Source of the DNA: Discostella pseudostelligera
Lineage: Eukaryota; Bacillariophyta; Thalassiosirophyceae; Thalassiosirales; Thalassiosiraceae
DNA: 21,835 nucleotides
Assembly: GCA_036940085.1 (NCBI GenBank)
Contig: JALLBK010000779.1
Location: 1 to 21,835, forward strand
Direction of reading: 5' to 3'
Within the stretch, counting starts at the first letter, position 1; each line of letters begins with the position of its first letter. The translations under genes and the position numbers were made by a program. Of the stretch, positions 1 through 19,603 are shown piece after piece. The notes beneath the pieces were generated by a model, which did not search any database, was not told the origin of the DNA, and saw only the letters and a list, made by a program, of their open reading frames with translations.

Positions 1-618
1 AGCGGAGTTCTGTTTGCTTCAAAAACAAAGGATATCGGCATTTCCCGGAATTCCGGATCCGACCATTCATACTAAGCAAATTTTTGTATTGAAGATCACA
101 ATTATCATTCACTCTTTTAATGAAAACGTCGATAAAGGTACGGTGCCAGAATCTCATGTAAGTCCCCGAACATCTATTTCCTCATCTCTAAACTGCCAAC
201 ACGCACTTGCCTCTCTTCTTTCTTGACGCCGGTTCGCAACCCATCCCTTTTTGGCGATATTCTGTCCAGCTCCATTGTAGTCAGGATCGCCAAATTACAT
301 CATCCACCTCCAGCCACAGCATCATGCTCTTTTTCTTCCTTCTCCATCTCTTGGTTGAACCTGCCGACTCGACGGTCAAGAGAAGCAGAACAATGATGGC
401 ACTTGGCACTGGCTGGAAGTGAAAGTTGTGTCGGTGTGTTGAGGTGTGTTCTGCAAGAGAATCTGGAACATGATGCATATCATGCATGACAGCTGACAAT
501 TGCATCATCATTTCATTATTATTGCATGAAATTTGGACACTTGACAAGCAACCAATCATTACATTCAGATTCAGAACCGAGCCGACCATACAATACTTCT
601 TCGTCTGGTACAGAGAAA
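1..618. other. Upstream region without a recognisable gene
   Basis: No frame here gives a convincing protein. The open stretches are short and low in complexity, with no recognisable motif. The region should contain the promoter and 5' leader of the methyltransferase gene that starts at 619, and perhaps the end of a neighbour to the left. No TATA box or other core element stands out. A perfect palindrome, CCGGAATTCCGG, lies at 45-56 and overlaps GGATCC at 55-60. It is the only structure I noticed. Confidence 0.5.
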
Positions 619-2996: not shown

Positions 2997-4421
2997 TTAG
3001 TTGAGCATTGCACCCTCCATGTTCTCGATACTTTCAATAACTGACTTCGAATCGGAAATGCTCCCAAGTATCCCACCTTGTGCTGAAATCATATCTATTC
3101 CAACTCTATGAAATTCTGCAAAGTACGATGCTGTACAATCTTCCAACACGATGCATCGAATACCTCGGTCGCTGGCCTCTCGAACAGTCGAATGGACACA
3201 AATTTCAGTCGTCACCCCACATACTATCAACGTGTCAACATGCAAGTTCTTCAACACTAGTTCAAGGTCTGTTTGATAGAATGAACCCTTCCCTGGCTTG
3301 TCGATTATGGTCTCACTATCATCTGAAAGAGGCTTCAATTCAGAAATGATATTATTTCCCCACTGACCTCGCACCATCGAGCGGCCATATCGCCCTTTAG
3401 ATCCAATGAGCGTGCCACCACCAAGCTTGGACGAAGATACATCTGAGAGATTTGTCCGATGCCCTTCACGTGTAAAAATAACAGGCAGGCCTTTCCGTCG
3501 GAACGAAGACAAGACATTTTTCGTGGGCGTGATGATGTGCCGCAACTTTGACGGATCGTTGCCAAGACTTTCCCCGAATCCACCATGGCACAGGAAGTCA
3601 TTTTGATAATCGATTAGGAGAAGGCACACTTTTTCACAATCGACACGCATTGTAGCCAAGGGCCTGACTGGAATGCAAAATTCGTCGCATGTTTCGGCTG
3701 GGCGTACTCGAGCAAATCTGGCGTTCTCTTCTCTTTCACACATGGTCGACGAAACAGCATCCGAATCATTACCAAGGCTTCCACGTGCTGAATACAATCC
3801 AAGTGATGCCACAAATGGCTGCGGATTCGGAAAGAGCAATTTCTTACTGTGATACCTATCTGCCATTCGAACCTTGTAGCAATCTCCAAAGTTCATCGGG
3901 GCTGGCTCTTTCATGCTCATCAGTGCATCAACAACCTCCTTCGTGTTGATGATGAACACAGTCAGGTCAGGCCCCACCGACACTGGAAAGTCGTGCCACA
4001 CACCCTTCTTGATGATAATTCCACAACCAGGTGGGATAATGTAGCCTTTCATGCGGGTTGGATCCGGCCAGCAACGTTCGTCTTCGCTCAAATCATCACG
4101 TTCGTGGGTAGGTTCGCCCAAGACAAGCAAACCTGGCGCCTTCCCAACAAGGAGAAATCCCTGGGTCATTTCCATATGGCGCTCCATCCATGAAATAGTG
4201 AAGTCATCCCTCCATTTAATGTTCGACTGCCGTACAACTGGTTGGTCTTTCCAATCAGCGCTATCAAAGTTATGCCCTTCCTTTACTGTTGCATAAAATG
4301 GGATACTGACTTCTTTTTCAATGGAGTGTTCACCATCAGTGATCAACCATCCGACATTTTTCGTGTTCTCTTTTGTTGCGAGAACAAGTTCGATAATCTC
4401 GTCGACGCAATGGGGATTCAT
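2997..4421 (-). CDS. Ureidoglycolate lyase-like / biuret amidohydrolase-like cysteine hydrolase fusion
   Basis: A single exon encodes 474 residues. Residues about 50-215 resemble ureidoglycolate lyase (AllA fold), which splits ureidoglycolate to glyoxylate and urea late in allantoin breakdown. Visible marks are MERHMEMTQGFLLVGKAPG, GYIIPPGCGIIIKKGVWHDF and DLTVFIINTKEV. Residues about 258-474 are an isochorismatase-fold cysteine hydrolase. Its triad is Asp271 (LLLIDYQNDF), Lys375 (IDKPGKGSF) and Cys408 (GVTTEICVHSTVREA). The spacing and surrounding residues (FTREGHR, DRGIRCIVLEDC, ISAQGGILGS) fit the biuret amidohydrolase branch better than nicotinamidases. Both halves act on urea-type C-N bonds, so nitrogen salvage from purines or related ureides is the likely role; exact substrates are inferred. 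No targeting peptide is obvious. The ATG lies 63 bp after the stop of the gene upstream on the same strand. Confidence 0.85.
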   Translation of the reverse strand: MNPHCVDEIIELVLATKENTKNVGWLITDGEHSIEKEVSIPFYATVKEGHNFDSADWKDQPVVRQSNIKWRDDFTISWMERHMEMTQGFLLVGKAPGLLVLGEPTHERDDLSEDERCWPDPTRMKGYIIPPGCGIIIKKGVWHDFPVSVGPDLTVFIINTKEVVDALMSMKEPAPMNFGDCYKVRMADRYHSKKLLFPNPQPFVASLGLYSARGSLGNDSDAVSSTMCEREENARFARVRPAETCDEFCIPVRPLATMRVDCEKVCLLLIDYQNDFLCHGGFGESLGNDPSKLRHIITPTKNVLSSFRRKGLPVIFTREGHRTNLSDVSSSKLGGGTLIGSKGRYGRSMVRGQWGNNIISELKPLSDDSETIIDKPGKGSFYQTDLELVLKNLHVDTLIVCGVTTEICVHSTVREASDRGIRCIVLEDCTASYFAEFHRVGIDMISAQGGILGSISDSKSVIESIENMEGAMLN

Positions 4422-4484
4422 TTCTTCCGAGCTCCGCTTGGAATCGAACGAAGTGGATGTGGGGTGCGAAAAATTAAAATCCAG

Positions 4485-7400
4485 TCAAGCCATTCGACCA
4501 CGTTTTTTGCGTTCTGGTTTTGTGCATTCCTCTCCACCATCGCTGCCGCTGCCGTCCTCAACCTCTTCACTTTCTTCCTCTTTCACCGATTGGAGATGCG
4601 AAGTGTTTCCTTTGACAGATTCTAAATCATCCTCTGGTAGCTTCGATGTTCGTGACGTGCGAACTAAATACGATCTGACAGCGTCAATTGTCACAATCAC
4701 CTCCTCGTGCTTTTCCTTGCAATTTTCAATTGTGCATTGGATGTTCGTCGCAAAGGCTTCTAAATATTCTATAAACCTCTCCAGCGGAAGGTGCCCTTCA
4801 TGGCTCAGTCTGCAGAGCGATAGACTTCGTCCGCTTCCGGAATAATTTACTGTTAAGACGGCGCATGCTAACAGCGGTTCGTGTAATGCAACAGCTCTTG
4901 AGAGTACGAGGATGATAGAATTTTCTCCGAGCAGATGATGTTCCATTGCGTTTGAGTCGGTGCATTTTTCGTCGCTACTGTACTCATTGTCGTCTGCAGG
5001 ATTATCATCATGAGGAACATCATCATCTTCCCATTCGGAAGAGGGGTCATTTCCATCACCTGCAGGTGCTGAGGAGGAGCCTCGGTGCTTCTTAGGCAGT
5101 AACACCAGAACCTTATTATTCTTCGACAACAGTGAGAGAATTTGCTCACCATCATCGAAAGCAGCACGACGCAAGATTATTTTCCCGATATCCTCAAAAT
5201 CTCTCGACACTAAACGCGCTTCTTCGCCAAGTTCCTGCATTGATTGAAGAGTGGCATCAACTTCGCCTTGAAATGACAGCTCAATGTTCGTTGAGTCACT
5301 CCATGTAACCTGCTTTACGTCATCTTTAGACTCAGACAGCGAGAGCGAAGTTAAAGAAATGTCGCTTTTTGCTGGGAGGTCGTTCGGAGATGCAGCTTTG
5401 GTGCTTTGCTCATGCTTTTCCGTTGGAACAGTTATTTTGGCCCGCTTTGGTCCTGCCTCCTTTTTCGCTGCATATAACTCTCGAGCAGCCTCTGCCTCAG
5501 CCTTGACTTCAACCATGCTCTTGCACGATGGAAAGAGAGACGAAAGCAATTTAGCTGACGCCTTATGCTTTGATTCTCGTTTCGTTAATCCCATGCCACT
5601 GCTCTCTAACTTGTGTTGGATGACGTCGTCACTCTCCTGCTGCATAGATGGCCTTGGTGTCAACTGTAAAGACCGACTCGGCGATGGCGCGGATTGAACT
5701 ACGAAACTATCCTTTCGCTTTCTACTCTGTGAAGACTCTCCACCGCAAAATGACGGGATACACTCATCTGATTGCAAATAATTTAAAGGAGATTGCCAAT
5801 AGTCCATAATGGATGTCAAATCTTTGCCATCCACAAGAAGTTTTGGGAAATAGAGGTTGAGAGAAGCGTTGCACTGAAACATACGAGAGCCAACATTTTC
5901 CCGAGGTGGATCGACCTTCGCGCGCTTGGAGCAACATGGTTCAGATACTGCCTGCTCCGGTATGTTCAACAGGTTCGAACACAGTTTGAATGTGTACGAT
6001 GGAGGCTCCCTTATTCTATCATCAATCTGCCACATCGCATGGAGAAGAGTGCTACAGAGGCTTGCCCCTCTTGACGCGTAGTAGGCATTTTCATCCTCAT
6101 CATCAATGTCACTGGCACTGCTCACGCCCGAAGTAGTTGATGCACATGGATAACTGTTTGGCGAGAGAAAGCGGTCAGACGACCCGATTGCACCAATGAG
6201 AGGAGATGGTGTCCCCCCAGACGACTTATACGACAGTAGAAGAGGGCCGCCAGAAATCAGAGCGCCTCCAGAAATAATATCTTCAGATAGAGCAGTACTG
6301 ATCGAGGAAGTCTCACTATGGTCTGGTGACAATGGTCGAGCGGAGCGCATGACTCCTGCATTATTGGTAGCTCCACCAATAGCTAGTTGCACTGCCAAGT
6401 GTGGACCCAACTCATCGAGAGATAGCAGCTTTGATCCAACATCAACACTACTCGCTCGGCTATCATCGGCTCCATCCTCGGCATAACCAATCGCTTTGTC
6501 CATAACCTCACGCCGAAGTGATGCTTCGCCGCTGCCAACATCAGTGAGAATCCCATTTGGATCAAACACTGACCCTGGCACCAATGTAGAAAATGCCTTG
6601 CGCGACGCACTCTGTTTAGCAGCGCTTTTGGAACCAGCTCGACCGCGCCCAAGTTCCACTCCATTGACATGGACGGAAAGGACAAAGGTATTCACGGCAC
6701 TGCTGCTGCTATTATTGCCACCTTCATTCTCTGAGAATGATGTTGTTGAATTTTGAGAAGGCTCAACGACAGAAAATGTTGGAATATCCCAGTGATACTT
6801 GCTACACAGTTCATGCAATGCCCGAACAGCATTCTTCCCAATTAACCCGCCAAGCACAACACTCGATGAGGATGATGAAGGCTTTCCGCTCTCCTTCTTT
6901 TTCCTCGAGAGGCTTTTCGATGGTGAAGATGATACACTCTCCGGCTGCTGAGATCGATTCTTCTTCTTGTTCCTTCCCGTGGAATTTTGTCGAGGTGTTG
7001 GGTAATCATTCGAGGATAATGAACTAATCGATGATTGGCCGTGTTGCAGTCCTCTTTTCTGACGAACACAATGACTGCTACCACCACCATCGAACTTCGT
7101 GTAGATTCTTCTTATATTATCAGCATGAGGTTGATGTGGTTGCTCGACTTCATGTTCATTGATACGTCGTCGTTGCTTGCTCTTTTCGCAGACAATAATT
7201 TCGCCACCACCGCAGTTATCGCTACTATTCTTCTGCTGGTTATTCAAATCACGACTTTCACTACCAAGCGATGAGCAGGAGTCGTTCCCGCTATTTCTCT
7301 TCTTCTTAGATCCCTTCTTGTCCTGTATCGGTGCCTCTGCAGAACTCGGTGAAGTCGGTGTTGTCGTCAACCCTCTTTGTGACTTATTTTGATATTGTTT

Positions 7401-8186
7401 GGTCCCCGCATCAGGAGGAGGTTGCCAAAGTGTTCGCTTCTGTCGAAGAGGCGGCCCACCACCACCACACTCTGGAGTCATCACCACTGGACAGTAATTA
7501 TTCATCATGGGATGCTGGTTACAGCCGAGCATAGGTGGTGGAAGCGATGCAGCATTAGGCATGGCATAATACGATGGCAAATATGAATGATTTGTCATGA
7601 TGTCAGCGGCTGTATTCATTTGAGCCGCAGCAGCCCAAGCCGCACCTGCGGCAGCATTCGCGTACTGCATGGCATGTTCCCTCATTTGCATTTCGTAGTA
7701 TTGTCGTGTGGCATCGAGGTTATTGGTTATGGCAGCGGCGGCAGCAATTGCGGGAGGAGGAAGAGGACGGTAATAAGAAGGAAGATAGCTGCCATTCATG
7801 TTGTTATCATGATACATGTGGTTGTCCATGGTGGAATGCTGTAGTGGGGGTAGTGGTGCACCCATTGACAACGAGGAGGCTGGTGGTGCATACGCGTTGT
7901 CACTGATGCAATCATATTTGTTGTTTAAACCAGCCGATTGTTGATCCTGGCTAGAATTACTCCCAGATTCTTGAACAACATCTCCGTCGTGATGAGTGAA
8001 CTCGCTCTTGCTTTCATCATCTGCATCAACTCGATTTTCAAGAGGCTTGTTCTCTGCACCATTCGACGACGGCGGTGCAGCTTCACCTTCAGCGCCGCCT
8101 CCGCCTCCACCCCCCTCAGCATCCCCACGTTCACCGAGCGATACTTTTTCGGCCCCGACGACGCTACTGCTGCTGCTATCACTCAT
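4485..8186 (-). CDS. Large dsRNA-binding-domain protein with possible C-terminal GNAT-like region
   Basis: One uninterrupted frame of 1,233 residues. The first ~440 residues are low-complexity (Ser, Asn, Gln, Pro, Ala and Tyr rich) with basic clusters (KKGSKKKR, KQRRR, RNKKKNR) suited to nuclear import or RNA contact. Residues about 450-537 form a dsRBD: helix KNAVRALHELCSKYHW, strand NTFVLSVHVNGVELGRG and signature GSKSAAKQSASRKAF, with a Ser/Asn-rich loop inserted between the first strands. A second, split dsRBD is likely. LLHAMWQIDDR, PSYTFKLCSN and FQCNASLNLYF (about 705-790) are followed much later by GMGLTKRESKHKASAKLLSS (about 865-885). Residues about 1000-1150 (IILRRAAFDDGEQILSLL; LLACAVLTVNY; LPLERFIEYLEAFA) recall a GNAT acetyltransferase, but the acetyl-CoA loop is not recognisable. 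The tail is acidic, ending in a basic KPERKKRGRMA. The ATG is preceded by a tandem repeat and E2F-like sites. Biological role unknown. Confidence 0.8.
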   Translation of the reverse strand: MSDSSSSSVVGAEKVSLGERGDAEGGGGGGGAEGEAAPPSSNGAENKPLENRVDADDESKSEFTHHDGDVVQESGSNSSQDQQSAGLNNKYDCISDNAYAPPASSLSMGAPLPPLQHSTMDNHMYHDNNMNGSYLPSYYRPLPPPAIAAAAAITNNLDATRQYYEMQMREHAMQYANAAAGAAWAAAAQMNTAADIMTNHSYLPSYYAMPNAASLPPPMLGCNQHPMMNNYCPVVMTPECGGGGPPLRQKRTLWQPPPDAGTKQYQNKSQRGLTTTPTSPSSAEAPIQDKKGSKKKRNSGNDSCSSLGSESRDLNNQQKNSSDNCGGGEIIVCEKSKQRRRINEHEVEQPHQPHADNIRRIYTKFDGGGSSHCVRQKRGLQHGQSSISSLSSNDYPTPRQNSTGRNKKKNRSQQPESVSSSPSKSLSRKKKESGKPSSSSSSVVLGGLIGKNAVRALHELCSKYHWDIPTFSVVEPSQNSTTSFSENEGGNNSSSSAVNTFVLSVHVNGVELGRGRAGSKSAAKQSASRKAFSTLVPGSVFDPNGILTDVGSGEASLRREVMDKAIGYAEDGADDSRASSVDVGSKLLSLDELGPHLAVQLAIGGATNNAGVMRSARPLSPDHSETSSISTALSEDIISGGALISGGPLLLSYKSSGGTPSPLIGAIGSSDRFLSPNSYPCASTTSGVSSASDIDDEDENAYYASRGASLCSTLLHAMWQIDDRIREPPSYTFKLCSNLLNIPEQAVSEPCCSKRAKVDPPRENVGSRMFQCNASLNLYFPKLLVDGKDLTSIMDYWQSPLNYLQSDECIPSFCGGESSQSRKRKDSFVVQSAPSPSRSLQLTPRPSMQQESDDVIQHKLESSGMGLTKRESKHKASAKLLSSLFPSCKSMVEVKAEAEAARELYAAKKEAGPKRAKITVPTEKHEQSTKAASPNDLPAKSDISLTSLSLSESKDDVKQVTWSDSTNIELSFQGEVDATLQSMQELGEEARLVSRDFEDIGKIILRRAAFDDGEQILSLLSKNNKVLVLLPKKHRGSSSAPAGDGNDPSSEWEDDDVPHDDNPADDNEYSSDEKCTDSNAMEHHLLGENSIILVLSRAVALHEPLLACAVLTVNYSGSGRSLSLCRLSHEGHLPLERFIEYLEAFATNIQCTIENCKEKHEEVIVTIDAVRSYLVRTSRTSKLPEDDLESVKGNTSHLQSVKEEESEEVEDGSGSDGGEECTKPERKKRGRMA

Positions 8187-8295
8187 CGTCTTTGTATACG
8201 TCCGAATTGGAAGGTTGCGGCGATCATACTACTGCTCCGGCGCCGTGTCCATGGTCGTCGCCGTCGCCTCGCCGTCGCCGTCCGTCGATCGCAGC

Positions 8296-8344
8296 AGATC
8301 GCAGATCGCAGATCGCAGATCGCAGATCGCAGATCGCAGATCGT
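8296..8344. repeat. 7-bp tandem repeat (AGATCGC), seven copies
   Basis: Six perfect copies of AGATCGC run from 8296 to 8337, followed by AGATCGT (8338-8344). Partial copies occur at 8287-8293 and 8349-8355. It lies 110-158 bp upstream of the ATG of the dsRBD gene, so probably in its 5' leader or core promoter. Because 7 is not a multiple of 3, every frame stays open through the array, which creates spurious ORFs on both strands. It could be unstable in length. Confidence 0.95.
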
Positions 8345-8381
8345 AGAGGATCGCAGCCGGATGTATGTATGGTGTCGTCGC

Positions 8382-8473
8382 TCCCGCCATTTTGCATTTT
8401 TTCCTTCCTTCCCGCCATTTTTCACCGGCTCCATTGAAAGAACGTTCCCGCCAGGTTTTCATGGTTCCCGCCA
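8382..8473. promoter_or_regulatory. Cluster of four E2F/DP-like sites (TCCCGCCA)
   Basis: TCCCGCCA occurs at 8382-8389, 8410-8417, 8446-8453 and 8466-8473, all in the same orientation. Extended forms are TTCCCGCCATTTTT and GGTTCCCGCCAAATCC; the latter contains the complete E2F core TTCCCGCCAAA. They lie about 195-290 bp upstream of the dsRBD gene's ATG. Four copies in 92 bp is far above chance for an 8-mer. Assignment to E2F/DP rests on the known consensus; binding is inference. Confidence 0.6.
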
Positions 8474-8786
8474 AATCCGTCGGACAAAAGTAAGTAGGAG
8501 TAGACAATAAGATGATGGTAGCAACAAGAGCATGCTGCCAATGATGAATAGAATGGTTCGAGCTTTGATGAAGGATGATATGGTGATGATTTGTACAATT
8601 CAAATAGTAAACACAAGCGTAAGGTGGAACCTGCTGTTTGAGCTTGCTGCATTTGCTGCACAACACTGTATTGGCAACATGCAACGAGTCCACCCGAGGA
8701 TGAGCAACGAGAGGAGAATCGTCAATCTGAACATTCTATAGATAAGTACAAACAGTCTTCAAATAATAAGCAGAAGATTTTCAGTG

Positions 8787-9931
8787 CTAAAAATTACAGT
8801 CTAAAGATAACTTCCTTGTTCCCTTGATCCAAGGGGTTGGTAATAGTACATGTTGGACTTCCTCGATTAAAAGAGAGAAACTGACACACCAAGCCGTGCC
8901 CGTCATCTTGTTCATTCTCTCTAATTCCAATCCTGACGAGAGGAGTACCGCAATGATGAATGCGATGATGATGCCGATGTTGAGGACGACGACGGCGCCA
9001 TCAGACTCGAAAACGATTCACGGAAGAACGTCCCCCACGAACAAATGGAGCCAAATTTCCAATGAACTTGAAATTCCTCCTCCTCATTCTCCTCGTGGAT
9101 CTCGGTAATGTTGGCATTCGAGTTAGCCATGCTATTGGTGTTGTTATTATTGTTCAACAATGCCATAGTCAACGAATCAACATCCAATCTCGACAGAATG
9201 TTCGATGACGGTGATACCAATGGTGGCAACCCTGGCAATAACTCTAAATCAGCTCCTTGCGCTACTCCTAGCTGCTGTGATGATGGCAAACTGCATGAAA
9301 CAGTGGCATAGTAACATTCCATAGACGAGGGACATTCTGTTGATGAACCGGTAGGGCAATAATGTACCCCATGGTAGTCTTCTTCGATCGAGGAGGACGA
9401 CGCTGATGGCAATGACGACGACGATGAAGAAGAAGAAGTTGCTCGCTTGCAACGTGCCTCCACATCCGAATAGGTCATTCCACACACAAATGAACTCTGC
9501 TGATGCGGTGTCCGTATTACTGCCGAATACGCAGCCGACGCCCCCGATGATGATGAAGATGGTATCTGATGACTATCCCCGCCCTCCACCACCCGTCGTT
9601 CTAACCGCTCTTGCCAATCTAATATCCAATCCATACTTTTGGATGGATCGCATTCTATTCCGGCGTAACATTTTTGACCGGAGGGGCATTCGCTGCTGCT
9701 GCTGCCCCCGTCGTCAGAGGTAGAACAGAGGGTAGTGCAAGACCGTGCCTCGCGCGGTGATGATCCACATGAAAAGGCCGATCCAAGCGCCTGTGCTCCC
9801 GGAATGAGCAGTGAGGGAGAGAGTGGACCGGACGAGGAGATGAGGAGGATGCTTGCTACTGCTGCCACCGCCGCTGACGACGACGACGACGACGATCGCA
9901 TGTTGTTTCGTCTTCTGCTGATTTTACCCAT
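8787..9931 (-). CDS. Secreted/membrane Cys-rich protein with 'CPSGQxCY' modules
   Basis: The start is ATG at 9931 (MGKISRRRNN). An upstream in-frame TTG at 9946 is not a credible start. A basic N-terminus and hydrophobic Ala/Ile/Leu stretch (AAVAAVASILLISSS) look like a signal peptide or anchor. Two Cys-rich modules follow: one with CG..C...C and ECPSGQKCYAGIEC, the other with VCGMTYSDVEARC, YCPTGSSTECPSSMECYYATVSC in broken form. They are separated by poly-Ser tracts. Such modules are common in secreted diatom and oomycete proteins. Read straight through, the frame stops at 8921 (336 residues). Removing a GT-AG intron at 9006-9067 (62 nt, phase 0) joins it to a frame with a clear transmembrane helix, AVVVLNIGIIIAFIIAVLL, and a tail stopping at 8787 (about 360 residues). 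I prefer the spliced form, but the donor (GTTCAT) is weak and the tail uncertain. Specific function unknown. Confidence 0.65.
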
Positions 9932-10209
9932 GATTTTATAAGTCAATCAATATATTATTGGGCGTAGGTGTTGTGAGATTAGATTGCTTTTGACGTTTGG
10001 GCAAAACAGATCAAATGACGTCGGTTGCTGGTTGCGCAATGCGCCCACCTTCGCTCGGCATCAATCGTTTATCGGATTAATTCCTTCCAGCATGCATGCC
10101 GTCTCTTCTCTGCATTCATTGTTGTTATTGCATCGAGCCTGCAGCCGCCATCGGCCCGCCGAGACGCCGGTCGTATTCATCGTTCTGCAGTGAATCGAAG
10201 TCTTCATCA

Positions 10210-10295
10210 GATCCAGTCAGATCAGCCACATCCAATGGGCTAATGTAGCAAAGTGGGGTTGGTCGATTTATTGGCCCATTGGATTTTACTGGATC
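10210..10295. repeat. Imperfect inverted repeat (nested arms)
   Basis: The inner arms are ATCCAATGGGCTAAT (10230-10244) and ATTGGCCCATTGGAT (10270-10284), complementary at 14 of 15 positions. The outer arms are GATCCAGT (10210-10217) and ACTGGATC (10288-10295), fully complementary. The loop is 25 nt. It could form a hairpin of about 23 base pairs with a bulge. It lies in the promoter or leader region about 245-330 bp upstream of the kinase ATG. It might be a small MITE-like remnant or a regulatory hairpin. Confidence 0.75.
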
Positions 10296-10375
10296 AGCCC
10301 ATGCAGCCACGCGTCATTTTATGCTCACCTTGAAATTGTGGCGCTCCAGCCTCGCCAACTCTCGCTCGTCCGTCT

Positions 10376-10383
10376 TCCCGCCA
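10376..10383. promoter_or_regulatory. E2F-like site upstream of the ankyrin kinase
   Basis: CTTCCCGCCATTTTAG contains the same TCCCGCCA core as the cluster upstream of the dsRBD gene, 157 bp before the kinase ATG. A single copy alone would be weak evidence; the shared extended form (TTCCCGCCATTTT) makes it worth recording. Confidence 0.4.
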
Positions 10384-10539
10384 TTTTAGTGGTGCACTTT
10401 CATTTCGACGACGACCGACAATTGCGATGACATGATGAGATGTTCGTCGGACGTCGGATGTCCGATGGGTGGACACTACGATACCATACATTATCATATA
10501 TCAAACAATTAATTACTACGCACCAAAGCCGATCGAACC

Positions 10540-13018
10540 ATGGCCAGTGCTAGCTCCAGTAGTCCAGCAGCCACCGCCTCAGGCGACAGCCTCACGAATG
10601 GAGCTGCATCAGCATCTTCACGAACGCCACTCGTCAATCGACGATCCAACCCAATCATCTCCACCGAAGACGATGAATTAGTCGATGAAGTCGTCGAAGT
10701 CAACAGCTCGGGGAGCCCCAATTATCTTCAACAACAGCAACAGCAGCAATACGTGAATAACAAAGCCCAAAGTTCATCATTTGACATTGACGCATCCATC
10801 ACTCGCCTACGCGGTTCTGGCTACCTCGCCTCGGCAGCCTCTCTCTCCACACCCACCGATGTCTTCGCCGCTGGTTGCACTCTCCTCCAATTATGTGCCA
10901 TTGGTAATCTCTCCTCCGTTATTGAATACATTACCAAATCATTCCCCAATGTCAATTTTCAAGACTATGATCGTCGTACTGCCTTACATGTTGCTGCCTC
11001 CGAGGGACATTTGCCGGTAGTCAAATATCTAATTGCCCAAGGGGCAAAGATTAATCGCACGGATCGATGGGGGGGTAGTCCGCTTGATGACTCACATCGT
11101 CATCAACATACCGATGTCGCACGATACTTGCGTGCCCATGGTGCCCGGACGGGGAGTTTGAATTTATTATCACGATTGATTACTGCGGCAGCGGTTGGGG
11201 ATTTGGAGGAGGTGACCATGTTATGTGCCGATTCGAAAGTGTTGGATTTGAGTAGTAGTCGTGGTGGTCGTGGTGTAGTAGGGGGGATAGGGATTAGTGC
11301 AATGAGTAGAATTGGAAGTACTAGTAAGTTGAGTGAGATTAGTACTAGTCTTGGACGGGTGGCACGCATGGGTGGAGGGGGTGGGGGAGGGAAAAGCCCA
11401 TTGAATACTACGTTGGATGGTAGCTCACCCAGTGCGGCAACTGCAGCCGCAGCGGAGCCAGTTGTTGACATCAATGAGGGAGACTATGACAAACGCACCG
11501 CATTGCATGTCGCCGCCGGTGGAGGACATGTCGATGTGGTCCTCTACTTGTGCAAACAGGGTGCGAATGTCAATGTCGAAGACCAATGGGGAGGCAGGCC
11601 GTTGGATGATGCCTTGGAAAAGGGACATGATAAGGTGGTGGAAATATTGCGTCAATTCGGTGCCAAGACGAAGGCTTCGACCAGTACTCGAATGGTTAGT
11701 TCGAGGTCGGTATTTGGATCAACTACCGGTGCTGCTGCTACTGGCTCTACTCATGATTCGATGATTGATGATGATCCGAATTTTAGTGTCGATTTCTTCG
11801 AACTTGAAATGATTGAACGCATAGGATCGGGTGCCTTTGGTGAGATATACAAATGCCGATGGAGGGGTATATTAGTCGCAGCCAAATGCATCAAGGCATC
11901 CAAAATTCAAAAGGAATGGCTTCTAAAGAATCGCACCGGTATGTCCAGCAAAGATCGGAGGGCGAACCGTCTCGATGCTATCAAACAAACGGCCATCACC
12001 GATGAGGAGAAACAGTTGGCACTGGAAGATTTTCGAAAAGAAACATCCATATTGAGACGACTGCGTCATCCCAACATTGTCATGATGTTGGCGTACTCCC
12101 ACTCCGATGATGTCGAGGTGATGATCTCAGAGATATGCAAATGCTCACTACTTGACATTTTCAATGCCAACAAGATTAGCAATTCGCAAATTCCAAAACG
12201 TACTCAGATCATATATGCACAGCAGCTCGCTCAGGGGATGAATCATCTGCACAAGAGCCATCCCCCGATTATCCATCGTGATTTGAAGCCTGCCAACTTA
12301 TTGGTCGATTTCAGTGGCACGTTAAAGATTGCCGACTTTGGTTTGGCGAAGATCCGGCCGAATCCGGAACAGATTGAGAGTGAGGTATTCAAATGCCAAC
12401 AAGATTAGCAATTCGCAAATTCCAAAACGTACTCAGATCATATATGCGCAGCAGCTCGCACAGGGGATGAATCATTTGCACAAGAGCCATCCTCCGATTA
12501 TTCATCGTGATTTGAAGCCTGCCAACTTATTGGTCGACTTCAGTGGCACGTTAAAGATTGCTGATTTTGGTTTGGCGAAGATCCGGCCGAATCCGGAACA
12601 GATTGAGAGTGAGGTATTCATGATGACGGGAGAGACGGGATCGTATCGTTTCATGGCCCCGGAGGTGTTTCGTCATGAGACTTACACCGAATCCGTGGAT
12701 ATCTATTCGTACTCAATGATATTTTATCATATTTTGCTAGGCCTGGCGCCATGGGCAGGATTGTCGGGGTTGGATGCGGTAACCAAAGCGGCCATGGATG
12801 GGGAACGTCCGCTCATACCCCGCAACATCGATGAGCGATTGAGTACATTATTGAAACGGTGTTGGGATGAGAGTCCACGTGCACGTCCCAGCTTTGAGGA
12901 AATCATCAAATGCTTAAATCTATACTCGCATGATGTGTTCAAGACAGATGACAGGGAAGTCCAGATGACATCTCCTTCACTTAGTGACAAGGGGTGTCGT
13001 GGATGCGTGATTTCATAG
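10540..13018 (+). CDS. Ankyrin-repeat TKL (ILK/MAPKKK-like) protein kinase with C-terminal CaaX box
   Basis: The start ATG is in an ACCATGG context. Residues about 1-100 are low-complexity with a Gln run. Ankyrin repeats occupy about 110-205 (RRTALHVAASEGHLPVVKYL) and 315-375 (KRTALHVAAGGGHVDVVLYL), with a Gly-rich linker between. The kinase domain starts near 418: Gly loop GSGAFGEIY (about 429), Lys449 (VAAKCIK), HRDLKPAN at 579 and DFG at 599. The frame stops at 12408 because a 229-bp tandem duplication (12163-12391 and 12392-12620) shifts it. Removing one unit, exactly a GT-AG interval 12385-12613, joins ESE to VFMMTGETGSYRFMAPEV and completes the kinase (APE motif, CWDESPRARPSF), giving 749 residues. 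The C-terminus CRGCVIS ends in a CaaX box (Cys-Val-Ile-Ser), typical of farnesylated proteins, so membrane attachment is likely. Left unspliced, the product is a 622-residue truncated kinase. Family assignment is secure; substrate and pathway are unknown. Confidence 0.85.
12163..12620 (+). repeat. 229-bp exact head-to-tail tandem duplication inside the kinase catalytic core
   Basis: Copy 1 is 12163-12391 and copy 2 is 12392-12620, directly adjacent. They differ at eight positions (copy 1: 12219, 12231, 12247, 12264, 12273, 12309, 12333 and 12336). All eight are silent when each copy is read in the kinase frame: seven third-position changes and one CTG/TTG Leu. The first ~56 and last ~55 bases are identical. 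Each copy spans the HRDLKPAN and DFG motifs. The unit is 76 codons plus one base, so it breaks the frame. One AG|GT (12384/12385 and 12613/12614) near the right end of each copy would let the splicing machinery remove exactly one unit. It may be real or an assembly join of two haplotypes. Confidence 0.97.
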
Positions 13019-13488
13019 AGATGAGCAGTGAAATGCTGATTGAACGGGTTGAGAAAGGGATCGTTGCATCCATGGCTGATTGCGTTACACCAATTCGTGG
13101 GTATTGGTTTTGAGCAGGTTGGTATGTCGGATGCATTTCTATTATGAGGCGTGTAGATGTGATTTCATGTGATGAAGCTGACGAGTGAACCAAAGTACAG
13201 GAATGATGATGTTCTGTCAAAATTAGCGCGGAACACCGATTCATGGTTCGGCATTGTGGGTGACAATTAGTTCATTCGTTTACTTTGAATAAATACATTT
13301 TATTCCTAATTATTAAGTAAGGTCGTTTCCTGTCTTATGTTTAAATGCGGGACAGTGTTAAATACCCATTTCTCAGATGAGGTTGATTACTTAGCTTCCC
13401 TTCCCGCGAGAACCTATGACATAGCATTATCCAGAGATGTGATTCCCTATGGATCTACGCATCTATGTGGCCGCTTCTAAACATATGA
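13019..13488. terminator. Convergent 3' region with back-to-back polyadenylation signals
   Basis: The kinase gene (+) and LTO1-like gene (-) converge here, with 470 bp between stops. AATAAA at 13288-13293 is placed for the plus-strand transcript. TTTATT at 13299-13304 is AATAAA on the minus strand. They are only five bases apart, in an A/T-rich stretch, so one short segment could serve both transcripts with little overlap. No coding sequence is seen elsewhere in the gap. Assignment is by motif only. Confidence 0.5.
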
Positions 13489-14280
13489 CTACCAATCGCT
13501 GTCTACCGCACTCATGTCTTCCACTGGTAATGGTTTGCATACTACCCCTCTGCTTCTCGGTTCTATTTCATTTCCAACTGGATTGTCCTCGGTAGTTTTG
13601 GTGTTTCCCTGTTGATGCTGATGTGTCTCCGTCCTCGAACGAATCCCTGTGTCCAATAAATTCTTGAGATCAAACGATTGTTTTGTCTTTAGCAATATGC
13701 AGAGCAGTTTGAACCGTGCACGTATTCTTTCTAATGGAGCCGAAATATCAAGCATTGATGCGGCTTCTGCTGCAGCTGCATGGTTGTCCTCTATTGATAT
13801 GTTGGCTTTTTCCAAGTTTAGAGTCTCGGTTACATGAATTCCGTCGTGGTTTACGGTGTCATCATTTTCCGAGGATTGCGCATGGTAATGATCTTTCAAA
13901 GAAGTACTACTACCTGCTGGCTTTGCCGTTCGGCCGACAAGTAGTGAATCTGGATCTGGAAACTCGTCAATCATATTTGTAAGATCATTTGCCAATGTTA
14001 GACATCGTTCCCATCGATGTGATTGCAAATTATGGTGCAGCACATCATGTTGTGATGACGATTTCTTCTGTGAAGAATCAAGATTTATAATTCCTCGTGA
14101 AAATTCATAAATATATCCAAGCTCCAAGCCAACTTCCCATCCCTTCGATCGACCAATGTTGACACCCTCGACATAACCATCACGTAGGCCCGCGGCTTTG
14201 CCTTCGTCTTTACCGGAGAGGGCGGTTTGTTGGAATGGATCAATGGCAACTTGGTACAGGAGGTCATCATTCCACATCAT
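13489..14280 (-). CDS. LTO1: LTO1/ORAOV1-like deca-GX3 protein (Fe-S adaptor for Rli1/ABCE1)
   Basis: 263 residues, single exon, starting ATG ATG at 14280. Near residues 23-55 there are nine glycines at every fourth position (GKDEGKAAGLRDGYVEG then VNIGRSKGWEVGLELG). This is the deca-GX3 motif of the Yae1/LTO1 family, followed by the typical Y.YEF segment. In yeast, Lto1 and Yae1 form an adaptor that brings the ABC protein Rli1 (ABCE1) to the cytosolic iron-sulfur assembly machinery. Lto1's C-terminal Trp is what the targeting complex recognises. This protein also ends in Asp-Trp (VDSDW). It is nearly twice the length of the yeast and human proteins; the extra ~120 residues are hydrophilic, with an Ala-rich helix and KLLCILLKTKQSF near 195-205. 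A Yae1 partner is not in the window. Family call is strong; function is transferred from yeast. Confidence 0.82.
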   Translation of the reverse strand: MMWNDDLLYQVAIDPFQQTALSGKDEGKAAGLRDGYVEGVNIGRSKGWEVGLELGYIYEFSRGIINLDSSQKKSSSQHDVLHHNLQSHRWERCLTLANDLTNMIDEFPDPDSLLVGRTAKPAGSSTSLKDHYHAQSSENDDTVNHDGIHVTETLNLEKANISIEDNHAAAAEAASMLDISAPLERIRARFKLLCILLKTKQSFDLKNLLDTGIRSRTETHQHQQGNTKTTEDNPVGNEIEPRSRGVVCKPLPVEDMSAVDSDW

Positions 14281-14679
14281 TGCTTTGTCTCTACGTCGTC
14301 TGCCTGGTGAGAGAGGGTGCGTCCATCTTCCGTCGTTCCTGCCGCTGTGCTCGCCGCCATTTCCTACTGCCTACTTCTGCTACTATCGATGGTGGCATGC
14401 GAACCACCTTATGGTAGGCGAACCCCAATCAATCAATTATTGCCCAATCGAGGAAGGACTTCTCAATTTACATTGCCAATCATCAATACTATCCATAATA
14501 TTTTATTGAGTCTACGTGTTGGCAGTGTGCATCGGCGACAAGAAGTAAATAAGTAGTTATGCCACTTGGATCAAACCTCGTCGTTCTCTAGTGTTACAAA
14601 CTCAATGCTGCATCGTCTTTGCTCCTCCTAAAACAAGCTCCCCCCCTCTCTCTTCCCTCAAATCTCACGCGTTTCTCTC
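14281..14679. other. Upstream region of the LTO1-like gene / 3' flank of the epimerase gene
   Basis: Both neighbours are on the minus strand, so this 399-bp stretch holds the LTO1-like gene's promoter and the epimerase gene's 3' end. A CGCCGCCATTTCC stretch near 14350 resembles, but does not match, the TCCCGCCA motif. A C/T-rich run lies at about 14632-14660. There is no recognisable coding sequence, and no clear AATAAA for the epimerase gene. Confidence 0.45.
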
Positions 14680-15780
14680 TTACACGGTACTCTCTTCATT
14701 TCCCAACTGCATAAGCGAATCATCCACCTGCTGTACCACCTCACTCTTACTAAAATCGGTAGTATTCCCCTCTCTCACCTCCCGTTCAATCTCCCCCTTA
14801 ATCCAAAAGTACGTCTTCCTCAATCCATCGATAATTTTCATCGTAGGTTCCCACTGCAACTTCTCAAGAATAAGCACGTTATTCGAATTACGTCCCCGCA
14901 CACCCATGGGTCCATCGATATGCTTAATGGGCAAATGTCCTTTATTCTCATACGAAAGTGCCATGGCCGCGAATTCATTCATATCGACCATTTCCGTAGA
15001 GCCAAGATTGATGGGGACATCACAGTCGGAGAATGTGAGACGCAAAACACCCTCGACACAATCGTCAATGAATGTAAACGAACGTGTCTGTTTGCCATCC
15101 CCCCACATTTCAAACTCCGTTGTGGCAGTAATGGCCTTACGACAGAATGCCGCCGGTGCCTTCTCACGCCCCCCCTTCCACGTGCCACGTGGTCCATAGA
15201 TGTTGTGAAATCGTGCAATACGAATATTTAGGGGAAAGTCCCGTCCGTACGCCAATGCCATCTCCTCGGCGTAAAGCTTCTCAAGTCCGTACATATCTTG
15301 TGGACGAGCCGGCCAGGCATCACTCTCAATTAGGCCCGGGTTGTTGACATCCTCCTGCTTCGATTCGTTGTACACACATGCCGACGAGGCGTAGAAGTAA
15401 TCCCGAACTTTGTTCCGACGAGCCGCCTCGAGCATGTTCATGGATATGGAAGTGTTATTGAAACTTAGTACACTTTCATTAGAACAGATGAAGCCCATAC
15501 CACCCATATCGGCCGCGAGGTTGTAGACTTGGAGACAATCTTTGCATGCCTTCACAGCCACTTCGAGTTTACGCAAGTCGTCAAGGATAAAGGTATCACA
15601 GAATTCATCCGGTTTCATGAATTCATTCTCTTTCCAATCCACGACGGTGACGTGGTACCCGTTCTCTTTGAGACGTTTGGCAATGTGCGAGCCGATGAAG
15701 CCGGCGCCGCCCCCGATGCAGACTTTGGCGCCATTGCCGGGGGGGAGGGTGAAGGGTTTGTGCTCGGTAGTGGTGGACAT
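14680..15780 (-). CDS. GME: GDP-mannose 3,5-epimerase
   Basis: 366 residues from ATG at 15780 (MSTTTEHKPF). The frame stays open upstream only to a GTG, so that extension is leader. The enzyme converts GDP-D-mannose to GDP-L-galactose (and GDP-L-gulose), supplying L-galactose for glycans and for the plant-type ascorbate route. It is an extended short-chain dehydrogenase-fold protein with NAD(P) loop GGGAGFIGSHIA, then NLAADMGGMGFICSN. Catalytic residues are all present: Cys135 (SSACVY), Tyr164 and Lys168 (MYGLEKLYAEE), and Lys207 (GGREKAPAAF). Each sits exactly ten positions before its equivalent in the Arabidopsis enzyme (Cys145, Tyr174, Lys178, Lys217). FHNIYGPRGTWKGGREK, MWGDGKQTRSFTFIDDCVEGV and GVRGRNSNN are also conserved. 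No targeting signal is visible, consistent with the cytosol. One of the most secure calls in the window. Confidence 0.96.
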   Translation of the reverse strand: MSTTTEHKPFTLPPGNGAKVCIGGGAGFIGSHIAKRLKENGYHVTVVDWKENEFMKPDEFCDTFILDDLRKLEVAVKACKDCLQVYNLAADMGGMGFICSNESVLSFNNTSISMNMLEAARRNKVRDYFYASSACVYNESKQEDVNNPGLIESDAWPARPQDMYGLEKLYAEEMALAYGRDFPLNIRIARFHNIYGPRGTWKGGREKAPAAFCRKAITATTEFEMWGDGKQTRSFTFIDDCVEGVLRLTFSDCDVPINLGSTEMVDMNEFAAMALSYENKGHLPIKHIDGPMGVRGRNSNNVLILEKLQWEPTMKIIDGLRKTYFWIKGEIEREVREGNTTDFSKSEVVQQVDDSLMQLGNEESTV

Positions 15781-16243
15781 GATGGCAGGGGCGGAGTAAT
15801 AAAAAATGTCGATGCGGCTTATCAATTCAATGCAATGATAATAATATGCAGGATGGATGCAAATAATAAGAGAAGGGTTGGTGTTCGCTGGATTGTTGGA
15901 AAGATTGTGTGCTATTGTGTGGCTGATCTGGATATCTTTGGCGAAGCAAATCTTTCCTACGGCGGAATAGTACAATGCCACGAAGAAATTGTGGATGGGT
16001 CACGAGTATGCAGGAACAAGGATCTTTTCTGGCCTTTTCTGGCTTTTCTCTTTGTCACCACTACTTTCACACTTCATTCACCGTCACCGTCCGAGGTCGG
16101 TGCCAATGGTCGTTCTAGTGGCTTTGTTGTCTATTAAATCGATGGAAGCGGAATCGAATAAATAGCTAAAGCATTTCGGGCAGGAGTGGTATCTCGACGG
16201 CGGCGTCGGCGATCGTCATCGACGACGAGACGATCGGTACACC
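15781..16243. other. Divergent promoter region between GME and the methyltransferase gene
   Basis: The two flanking genes diverge, so this 463-bp stretch should hold both promoters and leaders. A pyrimidine-rich segment at about 16024-16052 contains CCTTTTCTGG-like direct repeats. No E2F-like motif, TATA box or recognisable coding sequence is seen. The plus-strand frame running through 15529-16137 is antisense to the epimerase gene and has no protein-like features. Confidence 0.45.
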
Positions 16244-17122
16244 ATGGCAACTCAAGACGAGAACCCCGACAAACATAGTGTTGTATTCGATGCATTGCAC
16301 GTTGAATACAAAGATATGGCATCCTGGTATGATAGTTTCTGGAAGACATATACCAGCGCTACACAACAATTACCACTTGAGGAAGTGAAGGCATGCATCG
16401 TCGAAACTACACGTGACGATGGCGGTACTACAACTACCGACGGCGACGCTAACATCACTGTAATAGTCGACGTAGGATGTGGGACGGGGACATTCATGAA
16501 ACGCTTGTTTGATGAATATTATGTATCGAGAGAAGAGAAACTCAACACTTCTTCGTATGGTAGCAACATATCTGCGGGTCTACCGTCGCCAACATTGAGA
16601 TTGATCGGCATTGAACCATCCGAAGAAATGCTCCGACAGGCTACGACGAAATTCGATAAAATATACAAGATGGGAGATGCAGGACGAAGAAATGATGACA
16701 ACTACAGATATGTTACGGTGATACTCGAAAATTCTCCAGCGGAGCAACTACCTCTGGAAGATAACTCCGTGGATATTGTCGTCTCTACCAATGCATTTCA
16801 TTTCTTCCGCAACAAACAACAATCCCTCTGCGAGATACAACGTGTTCTAAAGTCAAACAGTGGTACCCTCATCCTAACTGACTGGTGCAGTGATTACATA
16901 CTTGTACGATTGTATCATTTCATGGAGAGAGTGCGCTGGAATTGGATGCATGGATACAAGGATGCATATCCTGCTCCATTGCGTAGAGATGAGCTTGCAG
17001 AACTTGTGGAGGCGGCAGGGTTATGCATCAACCAACATTCGACGTATCGAGTTAGAGTCTTCTCTTTTTTCTATTGGGGAATGCAATCAATTGTTGCCGC
17101 GAAGTGTCGGACGAGAGGATGA
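16244..17122 (+). CDS. Class I SAM-dependent methyltransferase (type 11-like)
   Basis: 292 residues, single exon, from an ATG in CACCATGG context. Motif I is VIVDVGCGTGTFMKRL at residues 73-88. It is followed by the acidic ribose-binding position in LIGIEPSEEMLRQA and by post-motif VILENSPAEQLPLEDNSVDIVVSTNAFHFF, split by a variable Ser/Gly/Asn loop. IQRVLKSNSGTLILTDW matches motif III of methyltransferase family 11. The segment DALHVEYKDMASWYDSFW before the domain and RLYHFMERVRWNWMHGY after it may form the substrate cap. Substrate cannot be read from sequence: ubiquinone/menaquinone-type, sterol or small-molecule methylation are all possible. No transit peptide is obvious. The stop lies 187 bp before the phosphatase ATG on the same strand. 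Confidence 0.85.
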   Translation: MATQDENPDKHSVVFDALHVEYKDMASWYDSFWKTYTSATQQLPLEEVKACIVETTRDDGGTTTTDGDANITVIVDVGCGTGTFMKRLFDEYYVSREEKLNTSSYGSNISAGLPSPTLRLIGIEPSEEMLRQATTKFDKIYKMGDAGRRNDDNYRYVTVILENSPAEQLPLEDNSVDIVVSTNAFHFFRNKQQSLCEIQRVLKSNSGTLILTDWCSDYILVRLYHFMERVRWNWMHGYKDAYPAPLRRDELAELVEAAGLCINQHSTYRVRVFSFFYWGMQSIVAAKCRTRG

Positions 17123-17190
17123 AAAATGAAAGAGGATCAACGCCGCAACTGAAACTGTTCACCACCGTAAGAAGTACTCATGGCAGAGCC

Positions 17191-17231
17191 TCCCGCCAAA
17201 TTATTAGTACCACGTGGAATCTGCCACGTGG
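17191..17231. promoter_or_regulatory. E2F-like site and paired G-boxes upstream of the phosphatase gene
   Basis: TCCCGCCAAA (TCCCGCCA at 17191-17198) repeats the window's E2F-like motif. Next to it are two perfect palindromic octamers, CCACGTGG at 17210-17217 and 17224-17231, offset by 14 bp. CACGTG is the G-box/E-box bound by bHLH and bZIP factors. The group lies 79-119 bp upstream of the phosphatase ATG, a normal position for proximal promoter elements. CACGTG also occurs by chance within coding sequence in this window, so only the exact pairing is notable. Confidence 0.45.
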
Positions 17232-17273
17232 AGACTCCATCCGGCTTTCGCGTCGCGCTTCCGCAATCCGCCA

Positions 17274-17303
17274 CAACAACAACAACAACAACAACAACAG
17301 CAA
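17274..17303 (+). repeat. (CAA)n microsatellite immediately before the phosphatase ATG
   Basis: Eight CAA units, then CAG and CAA, end six bases before the ATG at 17310. In the transcript this is an unstructured leader. If the protein started upstream it would encode a poly-Gln tract, but no ATG exists upstream in that frame. Confidence 0.85.
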
Positions 17304-17309
17304 TGGACC

Positions 17310-18247
17310 ATGAACTCCGCCGACGCCGACGCCGACGGTCGTCATCCTAATCTCTACCCACCGATTACCAAATCGATTACTCTCATCCGCCACGGAGTTG
17401 CCCTTCATAATATCTGCGATGAGAAGACGGGTGCAAAACCAGATGTACTTGATCCAAAGTTTACCGACTCGCCATTGACGCGACATGGCGAATTGCAGGC
17501 GTTCCAGTTGGGGGAGCGATTGCGGAGAATTGGGCTGGTACGGTGCTACCACGAAGATAATGCGGATGGTGGCAGTACTAGCGTAGGCACCACTGCTGGT
17601 TGTAGGAGTAGCAGCGACGCAGAGACATCACCCATTGAGTTGGTAATTTGCTCTCCATTGACACGGTGTCTACAGACCGCATCGCACATCTTTCCATCTT
17701 ATTTTAGGAGTAGTTTTCCATCTCCTGACACCTCCACGGATGTGCAATTGGATAGGAACTGCACAGTATGCTGTCATGCAGATGTGCGTGAAGCTTTTGG
17801 CAAAAATTATTCTGATAAACGAAGGTGAGCGCGCATGATGTGATGCATGGTGGAATGCATTCAGTGCATTTCTAATCCGAACAATCTCTTGTTGTCTGTA
17901 GCCCGCTCTCTCGACTGAAAACAAGATTTCCTACAGTCCATTACCACCCTTCCATTACTGAAGATGATATCGACTGGCAACCACATACTCGTGAAACATG
18001 TCACAACGTCTCCCGGCGGGTACATAATTTCTTTGTTTGGCTTCTCCAACAACCACACAGCAATGTAGCGATTGTAACACATGGTGTTTGGATGGAATGT
18101 GCATTATTGAATTACTGTCCAGAGGTGTTGGAGTTTGGAAAGAAGAGGGTGTATAATTGCGATGTTTACTCTGGTAAATTGTTGGGATCATCAGATGGGA
18201 GAAGCATTATGTTGACGGATGTCGAACAGATGACATTCGATGAGTAG
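17310..18247 (+). CDS. Histidine phosphatase (phosphoglycerate mutase-like) family protein
   Basis: Two exons, 17310-17824 and 17902-18247, separated by a 77-nt GT-AG intron, give 286 residues. The ATG at 17310 is the first in frame; an upstream GTG frame reads through the CAA repeat and is rejected. The catalytic RHG motif is in SITLIRHGVALHN with nucleophile His28. SPLTRHGELQA and ICSPLTRCLQTA follow, then VREAFGKNYSDKRR with the probable acid Glu161. The second catalytic His is 232 in VAIVTHGVWMECALL. The order RHG, E, H and the DKR element are those of the PGAM-like branch of the histidine phosphatase superfamily. Plant and fungal relatives are poorly characterised; broad phosphatase activity on sugar or other phosphoesters is more likely than true glycolytic mutase activity. 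It converges with the carrier gene, 126 bp between stops. Confidence 0.87.
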
Positions 18248-18373
18248 TATCAATCTGGAAGCATAGCACGATGTCAAACGATGACCAACTATCTCTAATA
18301 CGATAATTTGTCAACGCATCTGTCTGCTAATGTGGCCACACTGACAAAAGCCAAAAGTCCATCAAGCCACAAC

Positions 18374-19603
18374 TTAAGAGTAACCCGCAGTGAATTGCTT
18401 CAGTAGTTCATAGGATCCAAACTGTATCGCTGTATTCGGAGCCATTCTCACAATGTTGATGAATACTCCACGATAAAATCTCTCTATGCCAAATTTCGCA
18501 TAAGTCTTCCTTACGCAGTCCCTGACAAAGAGTAAATCGATGTTTGAGTACATTGCTAACGCACGTAAAAGAACAATGCATCATGTGCATTTTTCACTCA
18601 CCAATACCCCGTGAACTGTTCCGTAGTACCTCTACTCCCCTGCAATTGCAAAAGTCTCCTCACCGTATCATTCGGATAGGTCAAAATCCCAGCCATCATC
18701 CCTCCGGCGCCACCAAATGCCAACTTCCTTGTTACGCTATTCGCAACATCCTTCCCCTCCTTCTCCTCCTTCGTTTTTGGAAATGCGCTCTCCAACAATC
18801 CAACAGTACCAAATTTTACACCTTCATACGGCATGGCTCCCAATAATGTTGGTGTGATTCCCTTGTATAATGCTTTAATGCCTTCCTCGCGTGCTGTAAT
18901 CAGCACAGTATTAATGATGCCCTTGTAATGCTTCTTCCCATCCGGACTTGCCAATTTGCCCGTGATTCTACCCCGTGCTAAATCGAGTGGATAGGTTGCT
19001 GCCGATGCTGTCATACCTGCCATACCACCAGCTAGGAAGGAGATACTCCATGGCAATGACGCCTCCTTCTTCCCACCATCTGAATACCAAGAATGGTACA
19101 AGCTGCCCAACCATTTTCCATACAAATCATTACTCGAAAACACAATTGATTTGGATGGAAATACTCGTAGGAGATTGGCACCATTGCCAGCCCACAATCC
19201 TAATATACCTTCATTTTGTATTATTGATCGATAGAGATGAAATGGGGAGACTATACCTTTGGAACCAGAAGTGGACGATATGACGACGCCATGTTCACCA
19301 GTTTGGGAGAGCATACGGATGCGATCGAGTGGATTTGTTGCCGTCTACATGCAACACAACATCAATCAATCCAATAAGTGTTGTGCAATGGGATTGATGA
19401 GAGTGCATGAGTCACAATGAAGAAGGCACTCAACAACAATGCATCATCGACATCGCACAACATGAATCTCAATGGTTTACCTTGGCAATCATACCCGCAA
19501 CGCCGCCACAGACCATCCGTCTCGTCATGTCGGCGGCACCACCGCTCCCATTATCTTTCGTCGATGGTGGTACATGATGAGATGATGATATCGGATTCGA
19601 CAT
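18374..19603 (-). CDS. Mitochondrial carrier family (SLC25) transporter
   Basis: Three exons, 19481-19603, 18602-19344 and 18374-18521, with GT-AG introns of 136 and 80 nt and matching phases, encode 337 residues. All three carrier repeats carry the PX[D/E]XX[K/R] signature: NPLDRIR (residue 45 on), YPLDLAR and YPNDTVR. Six membrane segments can be placed around them, for example RRMVCGGVAGMIAK, SISFLAGGMAGMTASAATYP and LAFGGAGGMMAGILTYP. GLWAGNGANLLRVFPSKSIVF resembles the GNG..R element of the nucleotide/CoA carrier branch (SLC25A16, A23-25, A42). An adenine-nucleotide or CoA substrate is therefore suggested but not proven. It should sit in the inner mitochondrial membrane. The frame extends upstream into a poly-Asn stretch but with no ATG, so the start at 19603 is chosen. 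It diverges from the MYND-SET gene and shares a 310-bp promoter. Confidence 0.9.

What the first reader, a model, noticed from the sequence alone, without database searches (positions are those of the whole stretch)
12163..12620. 229-bp tandem duplication with a removable AG|GT unit in a kinase core: intron birth or haplotype join
Seen: two adjacent 229-bp copies differ at eight sites, all silent. The duplication breaks the frame, yet an AG|GT in each copy means that removing 12385-12613 (GTATTC...GTGAG, phase 0, exactly one unit) restores a complete kinase. Known: tandem duplication of an AGGT-containing exon segment is an established model of intron gain. Inference: this could be a young intron that is a copy of its own exon, catalytic motifs included. 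Against it, the acceptor lacks a pyrimidine tract. The all-silent differences also look like selected allelic variation, which favours an assembler joining two haplotypes or a recent crossover between alleles. Retention would give a kinase truncated after DFG, a possible switch.
Basis: partly seen in the sequence, partly recalled or inferred. Interest (0 to 1): 0.75.

Follow-up and report, generated by a model that had tools for sequence, protein, structure and literature searches.

The report
False tandem repeat from assembly join
The doubled 229-base stretch in this diatom kinase gene is most likely an error made when the genome was pieced together, laying two variants of the same stretch end to end, and not a newborn intron.

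Summary
In detail: two adjacent 229-bp copies differ at 8 sites, all silent, the frame breaks, and 12385-12613 is the only GT...AG stretch one unit long. The eight differences lie only in the middle of the unit. Its outer 56 and 55 bases are identical, as in one arm of a bubble in a k=55 de Bruijn graph. That k shows independently: at three places a contig tip shares exactly 55 bases with another contig, the window's own start among them. The assembly also leaves contig overlaps unmerged: both Ns in 255,670 sampled bases stand between exact adjacent copies. dN is 0 and dS 0.15-0.20, so the copies probably diverged as coding variants on separate molecules. The candidate acceptor is GAG in a purine-rich stretch, unlike three introns that I read by eye in the window. 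The true gene is probably one ordinary ankyrin-repeat kinase of a centric diatom near Discostella pseudostelligera. No sequencing reads were available to check the junction.

The parts
12163..12391 (+). First copy of the 229-bp unit, in frame with the upstream part of the kinase ORF
12392..12620 (+). Second copy, in frame with the downstream part; 8 silent differences from the first
12337..12391 (+). Identical 55-base right flank of the first copy (after the last difference, up to the junction): inferred terminal 55-mer of the left contig
   Evidence: k=55
12392..12392 (+). Single base A between the two inferred contig tips; possibly a filled joiner base where two other joins of this assembly carry one N (inference)
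   Evidence: compare L014:7414 and L034:5261
12393..12447 (+). Identical 55-base left flank of the second copy: inferred first 55-mer of the right contig
12385..12613 (+). The candidate 'intron' of the finding (GTATTC...GTGAG); judged not an intron
10540..12408 (+). Upstream ORF, 622 aa: ankyrin repeats and the first part of a protein kinase domain, ending just past the junction
12467..13018 (+). Downstream ORF, 183 aa: rest of the kinase domain, its first ATG lying inside the second copy
1..55 (+). First 55 bases of the contig, identical to the last 55 bases of contig C610: visible k-mer vertex of the assembly graph

Best explanation
An assembly artefact. Two haplotypes (or strains) of one single-copy ankyrin-kinase gene differ at eight silent sites within 118 bases and form one bubble in a k=55 de Bruijn graph. 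The left contig ended with one arm of the bubble plus the shared 55-mer after it. The right contig began with the shared 55-mer before the bubble plus the other arm. A joining step put the two end to end without merging the 228- or 229-base overlap, so the same stretch appears twice and the frame breaks. Shown: the geometry, k=55 at other contig tips, and other unmerged overlaps in the assembly. Inferred: that real molecules lack the junction, that the two arms are haplotypes or strains, and that the base at 12392 is a joiner.
For: (1) The first difference lies 56 bases into the unit and the last lies 55 bases before its end. For 8 differences placed at random over 229 sites, both flanks fall at 55-56 bases with probability 7e-5; with changes at third codon positions only, both fall at 54-57 bases with probability 1.5e-4. 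Seven of the eight are third positions, one is a first position. (2) k=55 shown independently. Of 15 contig tips queried (the window's start, 14 tips), two share exactly 55 bases with the tip of another contig: window start with C610 end and C15 start with the C127 end, reverse complement. A third contig tip, C202 start, shares exactly 55 bases with C1:36-90 and then diverges. (3) Both Ns in 29 sampled loci (255,670 bases; L027 and L028 lie close together on C233, so a little is counted twice) are single and stand between exact adjacent copies: 72 bp at L014:7414 and 29 bp at L034:5261. (4) dN 0, dS 0.20 by NG86 and 0.15 by LWL85; YN00 failed. Had the changes fallen on a non-coding copy, eight silent of eight would have probability 3e-6 to 4e-5. 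(5) Of the 120 homologues listed (of 473 found), 117 have one catalytic-loop motif, 3 have none by my pattern, none has two.
Against: No reads were available, so no molecule was checked. The junction carries a base, not an N as at the two other joins, so a filling or polishing step, or a join without a joiner base, must be assumed. The two other joins are exact copies, not diverged ones, and only two were seen. 13 of 15 queried tips showed no exact 55-base match to another contig's tip (the search scores only the best candidates). dS of 0.15-0.20, resting on eight changes, is high for two alleles of one diploid (my judgement, no call) and may mean two strains or cryptic species. That the assembly keeps divergent haplotypes elsewhere was not shown: searches with both window flanks and two 10-kb stretches listed no haplotype-like contig, but three of the four did not list even the query's own place, so they say little.
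Confidence: 0.94

Rival explanations
1. Young spliceosomal intron made by tandem duplication of an AGGT-containing exon segment (Rogers model): 12385-12613 is spliced out and the kinase is restored.
For: Removal of exactly one unit at AG|GT would restore the frame. The model is established: PMC4974935 (introduction read) names ATP2A1 as a consistent example and says the intron was generated experimentally in the paralogue ATP2A2.
Against: The acceptor ...GATTGAGAGTGAG has G at -3 and 33% pyrimidines in the last 30 bases; the donor is GTATTC. Three introns that I read by eye in the window are 77, 80 and 136 bp long, with GTGAGC, GTGAGT and GTAAAC donors, TAG, CAG and TAG acceptors and 60%, 60% and 50% pyrimidines. 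All eight differences being silent is not expected if one copy is non-coding, unless all fell on the coding copy, which I could not test. The model does not explain the 55-base flanks. AGGT occurs in 42% of 229-bp coding windows here.
Confidence: 0.02
2. A real tandem duplication made by unequal crossover or template switching between two alleles, giving a broken allele in one haplotype.
For: It would also join two coding haplotypes with silent-only differences. The junction is clean, without added sequence.
Against: It does not predict identical flanks of the assembler's k (chance about 1e-4). The breakpoints share no microhomology beyond the unit. It would break a gene that is found once in the assembly and whose listed homologues carry the catalytic loop once in 117 of 120 and never twice.
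Confidence: 0.04

Closest known systems
False heterotype duplication in genome assemblies (PMC9516828; start of abstract and passages seen)
   Same: Two haplotype versions of one stretch placed in one assembly; false exon gain within a gene is one of the types listed there.
   Different: Here the copy is 229 bp, breaks the frame and has no gap between the copies; no read depth or k-mer multiplicity was available to classify it as that paper does.
[quoted passage not shown] PMC4974935, abstract and introduction seen)
   Same: Exonic tandem copy with AG|GT at the same place in each copy.
   Different: No splicing evidence, no pyrimidine tract, unusual acceptor; divergence pattern and flanks point to assembly.

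Membership tests
False heterotype duplication | The two copies are variants of one locus that is single-copy in relatives | tested here: met
   0 of 120 listed homologues (of 473 found) carry two catalytic loops; no second locus seen in the assembly; D. pseudostelligera protein P0001 has the region once. Proteins only: a spliced duplicate in a relative's DNA would not show.
False heterotype duplication | Breakpoints agree with the assembler's contig boundaries | tested here: met
   Flanks of 55-56 and 55 bases; k=55 seen at three places where a contig tip shares exactly 55 bases with another contig
False heterotype duplication | Haploid read depth or haploid-specific k-mers in each copy, discordant pairs at the junction | not testable with these tools
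   No reads held
Intron gained by tandem AGGT duplication | AGGT in each copy, removal of one unit keeps the protein | tested here: met
   but 443 of 1060 coding windows of this size contain AGGT
Intron gained by tandem AGGT duplication | Usable splice signals (donor, branch point, pyrimidine tract, acceptor) | tested here: inconclusive
   GAG acceptor, 33% pyrimidines and GTATTC donor compare badly with three introns of the window, but that reference set is small and read by eye, and the branch point was not tested
Intron gained by tandem AGGT duplication | Spliced transcripts | not testable with these tools
   No RNA reads held

The most novel reading that the evidence does not exclude
A newborn intron that is a copy of its own kinase exon, fixed or segregating in a centric diatom, with the eight silent changes all on the copy that stayed coding.
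Probability: 0.02. Interest if true: 0.65.

Novelty: not a real feature. Interest (0 to 1): 0.08.

Why it matters
As a biological feature it does not. As a lesson it is useful: a tandem duplicate whose differences stay k bases away from both ends is what two bubble arms laid end to end would look like. Scans for young introns made by tandem duplication should filter on this, because such a copy, if it contains AGGT, will look like a frame-restoring intron.

Tried and rejected
DNA of the same gene elsewhere, to polarise the eight sites: viral contigs gave 8 pattern matches, none a relative; genome contigs gave two distant cyanobacterial kinases at 27% and 33% identity. Which copy carries the derived bases is unknown.

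Haplotype contigs: searches of the assembly with window 1-12162, window 12621-21835, L034 and L009 listed only short or repeat-like matches outside the query's own place, the longest 175 bases at 79%. The self match was listed but not in 45, 47 or 48, so these searches failed that control and are not informative about absence. The positive 55-base match was confirmed from fetched sequence.

Which program made the joins: passages of PMC3446322, PMC6733440 and PMC5368935 were read for a single-N convention. PMC5368935 says that scaffolding typically concatenates overlapping contigs and that SOAPdenovo2 places gaps within overlaps; none of the passages I saw states a one-N rule. My memory that some scaffolders put one n between contigs predicted to overlap is recalled only. 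k=55 is a usual SPAdes setting (recalled); the assembler is not identified. A search on 55-mer contig ends returned no paper; the listing of one on bubbles and tandem-duplication artefacts showed nothing on this point (listing only). Passages of PMC12159174 and PMC10700740 on Discostella were seen; a table row there for D. pseudostelligera begins with 3358, by the table's legend the number of sequences, so G000 (963 contigs) does not match it as listed.

Repeat scans. (20 fetched loci and the locus of the finding) also listed non-adjacent repeats: three in L006, one in L008 (119 bp, 94%, spacing 195; sequence seen) and one in L019. These are spaced repeats, not end-to-end overlaps, and were not pursued. 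The adjacent-copy scan (29 loci plus window, best place per period, entropy filter) printed five rows: the two N joins (L014, L034), this finding, and two not followed up (L019, period 42; L021, period 39). Left out: L001, L024, L025 (this locus) and L022, L023 (bacterial).

Full report
Observation. The window contains two adjacent 229-bp copies, 12163-12391 and 12392-12620, with eight differences, seven at third codon positions and one at a first position (CTG/TTG), all silent. The unit is not a multiple of three, so the frame breaks: the upstream ORF 10540-12408 stops just past the junction and a second ORF runs 12467-13018. The two ORFs carry ankyrin repeats plus the first part of a protein kinase domain, and the rest of the kinase domain. 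Only one GT...AG stretch of one unit exists, 12385-12613.

Source. The window is contig C726 of an assembly of 23.0 Mb in 963 contigs. The best protein match is a 751-residue kinase of the centric diatom Discostella pseudostelligera (P0001, taxonomy). The window's upstream part agrees with it at 596 of 620 aligned columns, and its last 134 residues at 133 of 134 (the parts were compared apart). The genome is thus from that species or a close relative (inference). Of the 120 homologues listed (of 473 found), 117 have one catalytic-loop motif, three have none by my pattern and none has two. One copy is the normal state. A predicted protein could hide a spliced duplicate, so this does not by itself show single-copy DNA in relatives.

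The flanks. The eight differences sit at offsets 56 to 173 of the 229-base unit, so the first 56 and the last 55 bases are identical. This is what one arm of a bubble looks like in a de Bruijn graph with k=55: shared 55-mer, variant stretch, shared 55-mer. Placed at random, eight differences would leave both flanks at 55-56 bases with probability 7e-5. With changes allowed only at third positions, both flanks fall at 54-57 bases with probability 1.5e-4.

Independent evidence for k=55. The first 55 bases of the window equal the last 55 bases of contig C610, which is 18,052 bases long, and the overlap is exactly 55. A query of 14 other contig tips gave one more tip-to-tip match: C15 start equals the reverse complement of the C127 end for exactly 55 bases (C127 is 22,387 bases long). 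It also showed that the C202 start equals C1 from base 36 for exactly 55 bases and then diverges (66 of 120 identical over the stretch compared). The other 13 tips showed no exact 55-base match to another contig's tip in that list, in which 40 of 43 candidates were scored. Two further contigs, C539 and C717, begin with 55 bases that match one repeat in C15 at 98% and 96%, which fits contigs starting k bases inside a repeat but is weaker evidence.

Independent evidence for unmerged joins. In 29 sampled loci of the assembly (255,670 bases, with a small overlap between L027 and L028) there are two Ns, both single, and both stand between exact adjacent copies: 72 bases at L014:7414 and 29 bases at L034:5261. 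So this assembly does lay overlapping contig ends one after the other. In the window the arrangement can be read as 55-base tip, one base (A at 12392), 55-base tip. That the A stands in the place of an N is inference; without a joiner base the flanks are 55 and 56.

Divergence. The copies have dN 0 and dS 0.20 (NG86) or 0.15 (LWL85); a third method, YN00, failed. Had the changes accumulated on a copy free of coding selection, eight silent of eight would have a probability of 3e-6 to 4e-5, depending on the transition weight. The copies therefore most likely diverged as coding sequence on separate molecules, as alleles or strain variants do (inference). I could not polarise the sites, because no DNA of close relatives was reachable, so the case in which all changes lie on the coding copy is not excluded.

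Splicing. The candidate acceptor is GAG with 33% pyrimidines in the last 30 bases, and the donor is GTATTC. Three introns read by eye in the window (17825-17901 on +; 18522-18601 and 19345-19480 on -) are 77, 80 and 136 bases long, with GTGAGC, GTGAGT and GTAAAC donors, TAG, CAG and TAG acceptors, and 60%, 60% and 50% pyrimidines. They are my own reading, not annotated introns. AGGT is common: 443 of 1060 overlapping 229-bp windows in ten ORF segments contain it, so a frame-restoring AG|GT unit would follow in about two of five tandem copies of this size.

Against this reading. No reads were available. The two other joins carry an N and are exact, not diverged. Haplotype contigs were sought with four long queries and none was listed, but three of those searches did not list even the query's own place, so they do not count either way.

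Verdict. The most likely account is a false tandem duplication made by laying two arms of one k=55 bubble end to end. The intron model (PMC4974935, abstract and introduction read) describes a real kind of event, but this is very probably not a case of it. False heterotype duplications within genes are a described class (PMC9516828, start of abstract and passages read). The absence of the junction in real molecules is inferred, not shown.

Noticed in passing
L014:7342-7486 (single N at 7414): A 72-bp stretch repeated exactly on both sides of a single N: another unmerged contig overlap in the same assembly.
   Followed up: yes
L034:5232-5290 (single N at 5261): A 29-bp stretch repeated exactly on both sides of a single N; just downstream a 16-base stretch (TTCTGATCCACCGCCC) occurs twice without an N.
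   Followed up: partly
window 1-55 and G000:C610:17998-18052: The contig's first 55 bases equal the last 55 bases of C610, so the two contigs meet at one graph vertex and may be neighbours in the genome.
   Followed up: partly
20780-20830: A gene with a MYND finger (ORF 19914-20813) loses its frame near 20810 and seems to continue in the overlapping ORF 20801-21565; it could be an indel, an assembly error or an unrecognised intron. The second ORF has no Pfam match at E 0.001.
   Followed up: no
8294-8347: A 7-base tandem repeat (GCAGATC, 7.7 copies, 97% matches) upstream of the first ATG (minus strand) of a 1233-aa ORF with a double-stranded-RNA-binding motif.
   Followed up: no
2997-4421 (minus strand): One ORF combines a ureidoglycolate-lyase-like part (E 1e-6) and an isochorismatase domain.
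   Followed up: no
L008:4221-4534: A 119-bp stretch recurs at a spacing of 195 bases with 94% identity, a diverged spaced repeat unlike the contig overlaps.
   Followed up: no
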